Source: Sphingomonas sp. SCN 67-18
Lineage (GTDB): Bacteria; Pseudomonadota; Alphaproteobacteria; Sphingomonadales; Sphingomonadaceae
Length of the DNA: 64,000 nt
Assembly (NCBI RefSeq): GCF_001724715.1
Contig: NZ_MEFG01000027.1
Coordinates: forward strand, 64,914 to 128,913
Direction of reading: 5' to 3'
Part shown: piece by piece, positions 48,081 to 50,657 of the stretch
Position numbering within the stretch: the stretch's first letter is position 1
Layout of the letters: every line of letters begins with the position of its first letter
Made by a program: the position numbers and the translations under genes
The notes under the pieces: generated by a model
What the model was told of the DNA's origin: nothing
The model's database searches: none
Seen by the model: the letters and a program-made list of their open reading frames with translations, nothing else

Positions 48081-49170
48081 CCGGCCGACCGTCCCGGCCC
48101 GTTTCCGTCAACCGGCCATGCCGTAGCGTCAGCCCGGAAAACCGCGCTTTTCCGCCGGATTTTGTTGATTTGCCCGCCTGCGCGGCCGATAAGAACCGGC
48201 ACGATCGGACAGGAAGTGGAGACAGGCGATGGCGTTGCTGGACCCCGATGCGCTCGGCTTCGACCCGGCACGGCTGGCGCGGATCGACGCGCTGCTGGCC
48301 GATCGCTACATCGCCCCCGGCCGCCTGCGCGGCGCGCAGCTGCTGATCAGCCGGGACGGGCAGGTCGCGCACCGGGCGTCGCTCGGCACGATGCGCGAGG
48401 ACGGCCGACCGATGGCCGATGACACGCTGTTCCGCATCGCATCGATGACCAAGCCGGTCACCTCCGTCGCCTTCATGATGCTGGTCGAGGAAGGGCTGGT
48501 CGCGCTTGACGATCCCGTCCACCGGCTGGTGCCGGAACTGAAGGATGTCGGCGTCTATAATGGCGGCGGCGGCGATGCCCCCTTCCTGACGCGCGCCACG
48601 GACGCGCCGATGCGGATGATCGATCTGCTGCGCCACACGTCCGGGCTGACCTATGGTTTCCAGAACCGCAGCAACATCGACGCCGCCTACCGCGCGGCCG
48701 GGATAGAGGAATGGCGCGGCGGGCACGATCTGGACAGCTTCGCCGCCGTGCTGGGCCGGTTGCCGCTGGAATTCTCGCCCGGCGCGGCGTGGAACTATTC
48801 TGTCTCCACCGACATATTGGGGCTGGTCGTCGAGCGCGTGTCGGGGCTGAAGCTGGACGCCTTCTTCCAGAGCCGGGTCTTCGATCCGCTGGGCATGGCG
48901 GACAGTTTCTTCCAGGTGCCCGACGACAAGGCGCACCGGCTGGCCGATTGCTATGCCATGCACCCGAAAAAGGGGATGGTGCTGTTCGACAGCGGCGAGA
49001 AGAGCCTGTGGCGCACCCCGGCGAAACTGCTGTCGGGCGGCGGCGGGCTGGTGTCCTCCACCGCCGATTATCACCGCTTCTGCCGGATGCTGCTGAACGG
49101 CGGCGTGCTGGACGGGGCAAGGCTGCTCTCGCCCAAGACGGTGCAGCTGATGACGATCAACCATCTGCCG

Positions 49171-49291
49171 GGCGGCGGCGACCTGTCCTCGCTGTCGAAA
49201 TCTCTGTTCAGCGAGGCCGCCAATGCCGGCGCCGGCTTCGGGCTGGGCTTCGCCGTCAATATCGACGTGTCGCCGTCAATATCGACGTGGC
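49171..49291 (+). repeat. Donor copy of a 101-base patch shared with the next gene
   Basis: The sequence from GGCGGCGGCGACCTGTCCTC to ATCGACGTGGC is identical, once the 20-base tandem duplication is collapsed, to 49691-49791. Here it fits its host: the encoded [20 protein letters not shown] then [12 protein letters not shown] is normal for class C-like esterases. Confidence 0.9.
49250..49289 (+). repeat. 20-base perfect tandem duplication
   Basis: TCGCCGTCAATATCGACGTG at 49250-49269 is repeated directly at 49270-49289, shifting the esterase reading frame by 20 bases. The duplication ends within 2 bases of where the shared patch ends. Confidence 0.95.
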
Positions 49292-49486
49292 GCGCACCAT
49301 GCTGCCCGGCTCCGTCGGCGAATATTATTGGGGCGGCATGTTCTCCACCGCCTTCTTCATCGACCCGGTGGAGCGCATCATCATGCTGTTCATGACCCAA
49401 TTGGCGCCGTCCAGCACCTGGCCGGTGCGCCGCGAACTCAAGACCATGATCTATGCCGCGCTGACGCGGCAGGCAGGAGAGAGACG

Positions 49487-50657
49487 ATGAGCGATCTCGA
49501 CACGTTCCGGGCGGAAACCCGCGCCTGGCTGGCGGAGAATTGCCCGGCCGCGATGCGCGAGCCGGTGCGCAGCGAAAAGGACATGAACTGGGGCGGCCGC
49601 AACCCCGATTTCGCCTCGCCCGACCAGAAATTGTGGATGGACCGCATGGCGGCGCGCGGCTGGACCGTGCCGGACTGGCCGGTGGAATATGGCGGCGGCG
49701 ACCTGTCCTCGCTGTCGAAATCTCTGTTCAGCGAGGCCGCCAATGCCGGCGCCGGCTTCGGGCTGGGCTTCGCCGTCAATATCGACGTGGCTCAAATATG
49801 GCACCGAGGCGCAGAAGATCCGCTTCCTGAACGAGATCGCGCGCGGCGAGATCCGCTGGTGCCAGGGCTATTCCGAACCCAATGCCGGGTCCGACCTCGC
49901 CAGCCTCGCCACCCGGGCGGAAGACAAGGGCGATCATTTCCTCGTTAACGGGCAGAAGGTGTGGACCAGCTATGCCGACAAGGCGGACTGGATCTTCTGC
50001 CTGGTCCGCACCGACCCCGCCGACAAGCACAAGGGCATCAGCTTCCTGCTGTTCGACATGGCCTCGCCCGGCGTGTCGACCAAGCCGATCCTGCTCATTT
50101 CCGGCTACAGCCCGTTCTGCGAGACGTTCTTCGACAATGTGCAGGTGCCAAGGGACCAGCTGGTCGGCGAACTGAACCGCGGCTGGGATGTGGCCAAATA
50201 TCTGCTGGGCCATGAAAGGGAAATGATCAGCGGCATGGGCCTGGCCGCCAAAACCCAAAAATCGCTCGCGGAGACGGCGCTGGAAACCGTGGGGCGCGAC
50301 GCCGACGGGCGGCTGGCCGATCCGCTGCTGCGCGGGCAGCTGGCGCTGTACGAGGTGCGCGCGCTGGCGTTCCAGGCGATGTCGGAGCGTTTCCTCGACG
50401 AGCTGAAGGCCGGGCGCGCGCACCCCGCCCAACCTTCCATGATGAAATATTACGGCACCGAGCTGAACAAGAGCCGCCACGAGCTGGCGATGGCGGCGGG
50501 CGGCGCGGATGCGCTGGAATGGGAGAGCAGCGCCTCCGGCGGCGGGGCAAGGGCGCGCAGCTGGCTGCGCACCAAGGCCAATTCGATCGAGGGCGGGACC
50601 AGCGAGGTCCAGCTGAACATCATCGCCAAGCGCATCCTCGAACTGCCCGGAGCCTGA
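49487..50657 (+). pseudogene. Acyl-CoA dehydrogenase, frameshifted by an invading esterase segment
   Basis: Intact ends of an acyl-CoA dehydrogenase of about 390 residues: N-terminus [20 protein letters not shown] to [13 protein letters not shown] in one frame, and [40 protein letters not shown] (FAD/substrate loop) and RSWLRTKANSIEGGTSEVQL in another. Between them the expected ~30-35 residues of the helical domain are replaced by the 101-base patch copied from the preceding gene, which leaves the wrong frame. Start overlaps the upstream stop (ATGA). As written the enzyme cannot be made in one piece. Confidence 0.82.
49691..49791 (+). repeat. Recipient copy of the 101-base patch
   Basis: Identical over 101 bases to the segment in the upstream esterase gene, but foreign to the acyl-CoA dehydrogenase it interrupts. 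The left edge lies in GGCGGCGGCG, a short run both genes would naturally contain (GGG codons); the right edge is followed directly by CTCAAATATGG, where dehydrogenase sequence resumes. Confidence 0.9.

What the first reader, a model, noticed from the sequence alone, without database searches (positions are those of the whole stretch)
49171..49791. Identical 101-base patch shared by two unrelated neighbouring genes
49691-49791 inside an acyl-CoA dehydrogenase is identical to a segment of the esterase gene 520 bases upstream (49171-49291, collapsing a 20-base duplication). It suits the esterase family but is foreign to the dehydrogenase, where it replaces about 30-35 conserved residues and breaks the frame. 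The left edge coincides with GGCGGCGGCG, which both genes could share. This looks like microhomology-guided template switching or non-homologous conversion, or alternatively a misassembly or consensus artefact; either is important for anyone using this locus.
Basis: partly seen in the sequence, partly recalled or inferred. Interest (0 to 1): 0.75.

Follow-up and report, generated by a model that had tools for sequence, protein, structure and literature searches.

The report
Probable genome-assembly error in two genes
A 99-base stretch of one gene also appears inside an unrelated neighbouring gene, and both genes are broken; the pattern looks more like a mistake made when the genome was pieced together from reads than a real mutation, so it is probably ordinary but worth correcting.

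Summary
Positions 49171-49269 and 49691-49789 are identical over 99 nt, or 101 nt if a 20-bp tandem duplication in the upstream PF00144 hydrolase ('esterase') gene is collapsed. In the acyl-CoA dehydrogenase (ACAD) the patch replaces most of a stretch that is 38 residues (114 bp) in 98 of 99 related loci; here it is 100 bp and the frame is lost.

Best reading: a local assembly error. The esterase duplication is blunt, and its internal boundary (49269) is the same base at which the patch ends. Both genes are otherwise intact. The esterase is continuous at this site in 34 of 34 homologues. In the 47% of the genome sampled there is a second blunt frame-breaking duplication (56 bp, in a T4SS coupling-protein gene) and two single Ns inside genes. 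Five other exact tandem arrays inspected all carry 4-14 bp of extra homology. No Ku gene was found, which weakens an end-joining rival.

No reads were available, so the artefact is inferred, not shown; I put it at 0.83. Interest is low.

The parts
48229..49490 (+). PF00144 serine hydrolase ('esterase') gene; frame broken by a 20-bp tandem duplication (open frame ends at 49395; the native C-terminus reads on in another frame to 49490)
49171..49269 (+). 99-nt segment native to the esterase (the 'donor' copy)
   Evidence: homologues show a similar protein stretch here
49250..49289 (+). exact, blunt 20-bp tandem duplication; its internal boundary 49269/49270 is the same donor base at which the patch ends
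49487..50657 (+). acyl-CoA dehydrogenase gene, broken into an upstream frame (from ATG 49487) and a downstream frame (that of ORF 49689-50657)
49691..49789 (+). displaced copy of the esterase segment inside the dehydrogenase; 49691-49700 (GGCGGCGGCG) and the following GC (49790-49791) are ambiguous edges

Best explanation
The locus is a local assembly error. The genome probably carries an ordinary esterase gene and an ordinary ACAD gene side by side. The assembly broke at the esterase codons ending ...GACGTG and again inside the ACAD. In the esterase, two pieces overlapping by 20 bp were abutted without merging, giving the blunt duplication. In the ACAD gap, extension ran from GGCGGCGGCG into esterase sequence lying only 520 bp away, copied it up to the same end point, and was butted against the next ACAD piece. 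The result is 14 bp short and out of frame. Shown: letters, breakpoints, lengths, frames, and the state of relatives. Inferred: that reads would not support the joins, and the particular assembly step.
For: (1) The window's only exact tandem duplication of period 13-199 has its internal boundary at 49269, the donor base at which the 99-nt patch ends (49789). One break explains both lesions. (2) The duplication is blunt: zero bases of homology beyond the unit. (3) Parallels in the same assembly (75 stretches, 1.50 of 3.22 Mb): a blunt 56-bp tandem duplication splitting a T4SS coupling-protein gene into two frames (L158 12781-12892), whose halves match adjoining parts of PF02534; and two single Ns inside genes: L022, where the piece on one side matches TrbI, and L156, where TsaE is left fused across the N to a phosphotransferase. 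The five other exact tandem arrays inspected (two from this genome, three from the controls) carry 4-14 bp of extra homology, and four of the five have a period divisible by 3. (4) Outside the lesions both genes match their families. Relatives show the normal state: the 38-residue ACAD spacer in 95 of 99 loci by pattern and in 3 of the other 4 by alignment; the esterase continuous and in frame in 34 of 34 homologues. (5) A relative's version of the lost ACAD piece finds only weaker paralogues (42% identity or less) elsewhere in the assembly. (6) PMC7111523 (passages read) describes overlaps left unmerged at scaffold joins, with duplicate sequence, and consensus unsupported by any read.
Against: No reads, second assembly or same-genus genome were available, so no test reached the joins themselves. 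Exact tandem duplications as such are not enriched here: with period 15 or more there are 3 in 1.50 Mb of this genome and 3 non-homopolymer ones in 0.93 Mb of control loci. Bluntness is not special at short periods: 5 exact blunt arrays of period 10-12 occur in the first 438,493 bases scanned. The contrast rests on two long blunt cases. The lengths 20 and 56 differ, so no single k-mer size accounts for both. The 56-bp case could not be compared with relatives at DNA level: 25 genomes searched, only short weak matches besides the own copy. No other displaced long patch was found, and there is no N at the locus itself.
Confidence: 0.83

Rival explanations
1. Real microhomology-guided template switch: a nascent strand in the ACAD left at GGCGGCGGCG, copied about 90 nt of the esterase 520 bp away, and returned at GC, deleting roughly 100-110 bp of ACAD. 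The 20-bp duplication in the esterase arose separately.
For: Both patch edges show shared sequence: 10 nt at the left that either gene could own (donor's first 18 nt against native ACAD DNA: 16-17 matches in 14 of 98 readable relatives), and GC at the right. The donor is nearby and in the same orientation.
Against: Template switching leaves the donor unchanged, so the duplication with the same end point needs a second, coincident event, and that duplication has no microhomology. It would break two conserved neighbouring genes with no other decay seen.
Confidence: 0.09
2. Real two-break repair: a staggered break in the esterase was filled in and blunt-joined (20-bp duplication), while its broken end, finishing at GACGTG, served as template for filling a second break in the ACAD.
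For: It explains the shared boundary and the blunt duplication with one cause.
Against: No Ku (PF02735) match in the 98.68%-complete assembly (the same search found Ku in 1 of 14 named control genomes, Bacillus subtilis). An ATP-dependent ligase domain is present at one place, but without Ku this is weak support for end joining. It also does not explain the single Ns elsewhere.
Confidence: 0.05
3. A chimera of strain variants in a mixed sample: the pieces come from co-existing strains and were joined wrongly.
For: A tandem near-copy (period 173, four mismatches in 168 nt) lies at the 3' end of a GST gene in the same assembly (L181), as an unmerged overlap between two variants would look.
Against: The two copies of the 99-nt segment are identical, so no second variant is visible here. 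The GST case could be a natural duplication. Whether the genome is a MAG is not known.
Confidence: 0.03

Closest known systems
Local assembly errors with duplicate sequence at unmerged scaffold joins (PMC7111523, Accurate and complete genomes from metagenomes; passages read)
   Same: Duplicate sequence at a join between overlapping pieces; incomplete or incorrect gene sequences as the result
   Different: The passages describe Ns between the duplicated ends; here the 20-bp copies abut without N, and a longer displaced copy lies 520 bp away
Misjunctions from automated gap closing with paired reads (GapFiller paper, PMC3446322; passages read)
   Same: Reads whose mates anchor near a gap are recruited and extended by k-mer overlap; the closed length may deviate from the estimate; misjunctions are counted as an error class
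   Different: Nothing here says that a gap closer was used for this genome; GapFiller's default asks for at least 10 nt of overlap between the two extensions, and at most 2 nt are shared at the right join
Microhomology-mediated template switching / MMBIR (search listing and start of abstract only, e.g. PMC2621351; otherwise recalled)
   Same: Copy of a nearby segment with short homology at the edges
   Different: Donor altered at the same breakpoint; that duplication is blunt

Membership tests
Local assembly error (misjoin / unmerged overlap) | Joined sequence lacks support from any spanning read | not testable with these tools
   No reads available
Local assembly error (misjoin / unmerged overlap) | Blunt duplicate of piece ends at the join | tested here: met
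   20-bp unit, 0 bp of homology beyond it
Local assembly error (misjoin / unmerged overlap) | Other joins of the same kind in the assembly | tested here: inconclusive
   One 56-bp blunt frame-breaking duplication (L158) and single Ns in L022 and L156 in 1.50 Mb; few cases, each itself unproven, and tandem duplications as such not enriched against controls
Local assembly error (misjoin / unmerged overlap) | Relatives show uninterrupted genes at the site | tested here: met
   38-residue ACAD spacer in 98 of 99 loci (95 by pattern, 3 by alignment; the last is interrupted by Ns); 34 of 34 esterase homologues continuous. A real recent mutation would look the same in this test
Microhomology-mediated template switch | Short shared sequence at both edges of the copied patch | tested here: met
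   GGCGGCGGCG at the left, GC at the right; the native ACAD letters of this strain are not known and are judged from relatives
Microhomology-mediated template switch | Donor locus left unchanged | tested here: not met
   Donor carries a 20-bp duplication ending at the patch breakpoint
Ku/LigD end joining | Ku encoded in the genome | tested here: not met
   No PF02735 match in G000; the assembly is 98.68% complete, so a missed gene is possible

The most novel reading that the evidence does not exclude
A real, recent two-break repair event in a bacterium without a detected Ku: the broken end of one gene was used as a run-out template to patch a break in the neighbouring unrelated gene, while the donor break was closed as a blunt 20-bp duplication. 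This would be a captured bacterial templated insertion with a shared breakpoint.
Probability: 0.05. Interest if true: 0.5.

Novelty: not a real feature. Interest (0 to 1): 0.12.

Why it matters
Taken at face value the locus suggests two pseudogenes and an exotic conversion event. Read as an assembly error, it warns users not to call this ACAD and esterase lost and not to model the chimeric protein. It also points to other suspect places in the same assembly: a T4SS coupling-protein gene, trbI, tsaE and possibly a GST gene. A blunt tandem duplication together with a displaced copy that ends at the same base may serve as a cheap, read-free flag for such errors.

Tried and rejected
Search for the missing ACAD piece elsewhere in the assembly, with a relative's 77-residue version: apart from the locus itself only weaker paralogues, 42% identity or less. 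Search for a same-genus genome to compare directly: only G000 itself is held. Near matches on plasmids: 9 records, none covering 80% of the query in one place, none informative. Relatives of the 56-bp duplication site at DNA level: 8 of 25 genomes matched, the own copy in full and the others only by short weak matches, so no comparison was possible. A fixed k-mer overlap as the cause of both duplications: rejected, because the lengths 20 and 56 differ. The match of 101 nt to a common read length: considered, but two of the 101 letters are ambiguous and the read length is unknown, so it is not used. Enrichment of tandem duplications as such: not seen (period 15 or more: 3 in 1.50 Mb against 3 non-homopolymer ones in 0.93 Mb), so the argument uses bluntness and frame. 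The 38-nt repeat in L136 (spacing 135) looks like natural divergent repeats; of the two 28-nt copies in L151 one lies in a tRNA-Ser gene. Literature searches. Passages were read from two papers; the others were seen only in listings.

Full report
What is there. The 99 nt at 49171-49269 recur without a mismatch at 49691-49789, 520 bp downstream on the same strand. The upstream copy lies in a gene for a PF00144 serine hydrolase; the downstream copy lies in an acyl-CoA dehydrogenase (ACAD) whose pieces match PF02771, PF02770 and PF00441. Inside the upstream gene the last 20 bases of the segment, 49250-49269, are repeated head to tail at 49270-49289. GC could also belong to the native dehydrogenase: some relatives, such as L048, read CTGCTCAAATAT there. 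The repeat is far beyond chance: outside this cluster the longest exact direct repeat in the window is 21 nt.

Which copy is native. The segment fits the hydrolase: homologues in six relatives (L122-L127) have a similar stretch, such as [30 protein letters not shown] in L124, and run on past the point where the window is duplicated. In the ACAD the segment is foreign. Relatives have 38 residues between YGG and (Y/F)GTE in 95 of 99 loci by a motif pattern. Of the four that the pattern missed, three (L007, L008, L077) show the same length by alignment, and one (L084) is interrupted by a run of N. The window has 100 bp (49697-49796) where 114 are expected, so it is 14 bp short and the frame changes. 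The upstream frame from ATG 49487 and the downstream frame of ORF 49689-50657 each carry normal ACAD sequence outside the patch. A relative's version of the lost piece finds only weaker paralogues elsewhere in the assembly. In 28 of 80 named ACAD loci the hydrolase lies on the same strand within the fetched flank, upstream of the ACAD; two weaker opposite-strand hits (L098, L100) fall below the cut-off used. So the neighbourhood is a normal one.

Breakpoints. The left edge, GGCGGCGGCG, could belong to either gene. In relatives the native ACAD DNA there matches the donor's first 18 nt at 16-17 positions in 14 of 98 readable loci, against none of 19,800 random positions at 16 or more in the same script. 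The right edge shares at most GC. The key point is that the last donor base of the patch (49789) corresponds to 49269, exactly the internal boundary of the 20-bp duplication in the donor gene. This is the only exact tandem duplication of period 13-199 in the 64-kb window. Two independent lesions meeting at one base would be an odd coincidence; a break in the assembly at that base explains both.

State of the assembly. G000 has 79 contigs, 3.22 Mb, 98.68% completeness. I scanned 75 stretches (1,504,230 bases, window included) for exact repeats at spacings under 2 kb and for exact tandem arrays. Besides the present pair this gave: a 56-bp exact tandem duplication in L158 that splits a T4SS coupling-protein gene into two overlapping frames, whose halves match positions 32-140 and 132-452 of PF02534; a tandem near-copy of period 173, four mismatches in 168 nt, at the end of a GST gene (L181); and repeats that look natural. 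A search for the L158 site in 25 genomes gave only short weak matches besides the own copy, so relatives could not confirm that case. Two single Ns lie inside genes. In L022 the piece on one side matches TrbI and the short piece on the other matches no Pfam family. In L156 one open frame runs from TsaE across the N into a phosphotransferase-family protein. That the frame changes at the two Ns is my reading of the translations, not a Pfam result.

Control. The same scan on 80 loci with related ACAD genes, mostly sphingomonads (934,045 bases), found three non-homopolymer exact tandem arrays of period 15-21. By rate alone the present genome is not unusual: three of period 15 or more in 1.50 Mb. 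The difference is in kind. Two arrays from this genome (L036, L183) and three from the controls (L075, L087, L102) carry 4-14 bp of homology beyond the unit, and four of the five have a period divisible by three; whether L075's array is coding was not settled. The two suspects, 20 bp here and 56 bp in L158, have zero extra homology and a period that shifts the frame. Against this, five blunt exact arrays of period 10-12 occur in the first 438,493 bases scanned, so bluntness tells only at longer periods. The numbers are small.

Mechanism. Most likely the assembly was interrupted at ...GACGTG in the hydrolase and in the native ACAD stretch. Two pieces overlapping by 20 bp were placed end to end in the hydrolase. 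In the ACAD, extension crossed from GGCGGCGGCG into hydrolase sequence, near enough to lie within a paired-read insert (inference), and stopped at the same end. PMC7111523 (passages read) describes overlaps left unmerged with duplicate sequence at scaffold joins, and consensus with no read support. The GapFiller paper (PMC3446322, passages read) describes recruiting reads by mates near a gap and counts misjunctions. I do not know which software made this genome, and GapFiller's own default overlap would not have been met at the right edge.

Rivals. A template switch explains the patch but leaves the donor untouched, so the donor's blunt duplication at the same base needs a second event. A two-break end-joining model explains both, but no Ku was found; an ATP-dependent ligase domain is present once. 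Neither is excluded without reads. The intact relatives do not decide between an artefact and a real recent mutation; they only fix the normal state. The related locus L084 has a run of Ns inside the same gene. It may be an assembly gap or masking by the collection, and I do not count it.

Verdict. Observation confirmed; it is probably not a biological feature. Confidence 0.83 in an assembly error.

Noticed in passing
L158 12781-12892 (G000:C45): Exact blunt 56-bp tandem duplication splits a T4SS coupling-protein (PF02534) gene into two frames; a second likely join error.
   Followed up: partly
L022 2913 (G000:C27) and L156 15943 (G000:C43): Single N inside a trbI gene and inside tsaE, apparently with a frame change across each; the tsaE case fuses it to a following phosphotransferase gene.
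   Followed up: partly
L181 16728-17068 (G000:C18): Tandem near-copy (period 173, four mismatches in 168 nt) of the 3' end of a GST gene; an unmerged overlap between strain variants or a natural duplication.
   Followed up: partly
L151 10472-10499 and 10635-10662 (G000:C38): A 28-nt part of a tRNA-Ser gene is repeated 163 bp away, where ARAGORN calls no tRNA; could be an integration-site remnant.
   Followed up: no
L136 10759-10931 (G000:C22): Two imperfect copies at a spacing of 135 bp that share 38 exact nt.
   Followed up: no
L108 from 6981: A public record (Altererythrobacter sp. C41) carries a run of more than 60 G near a contig end, itself an apparent sequencing or assembly artefact.
   Followed up: no
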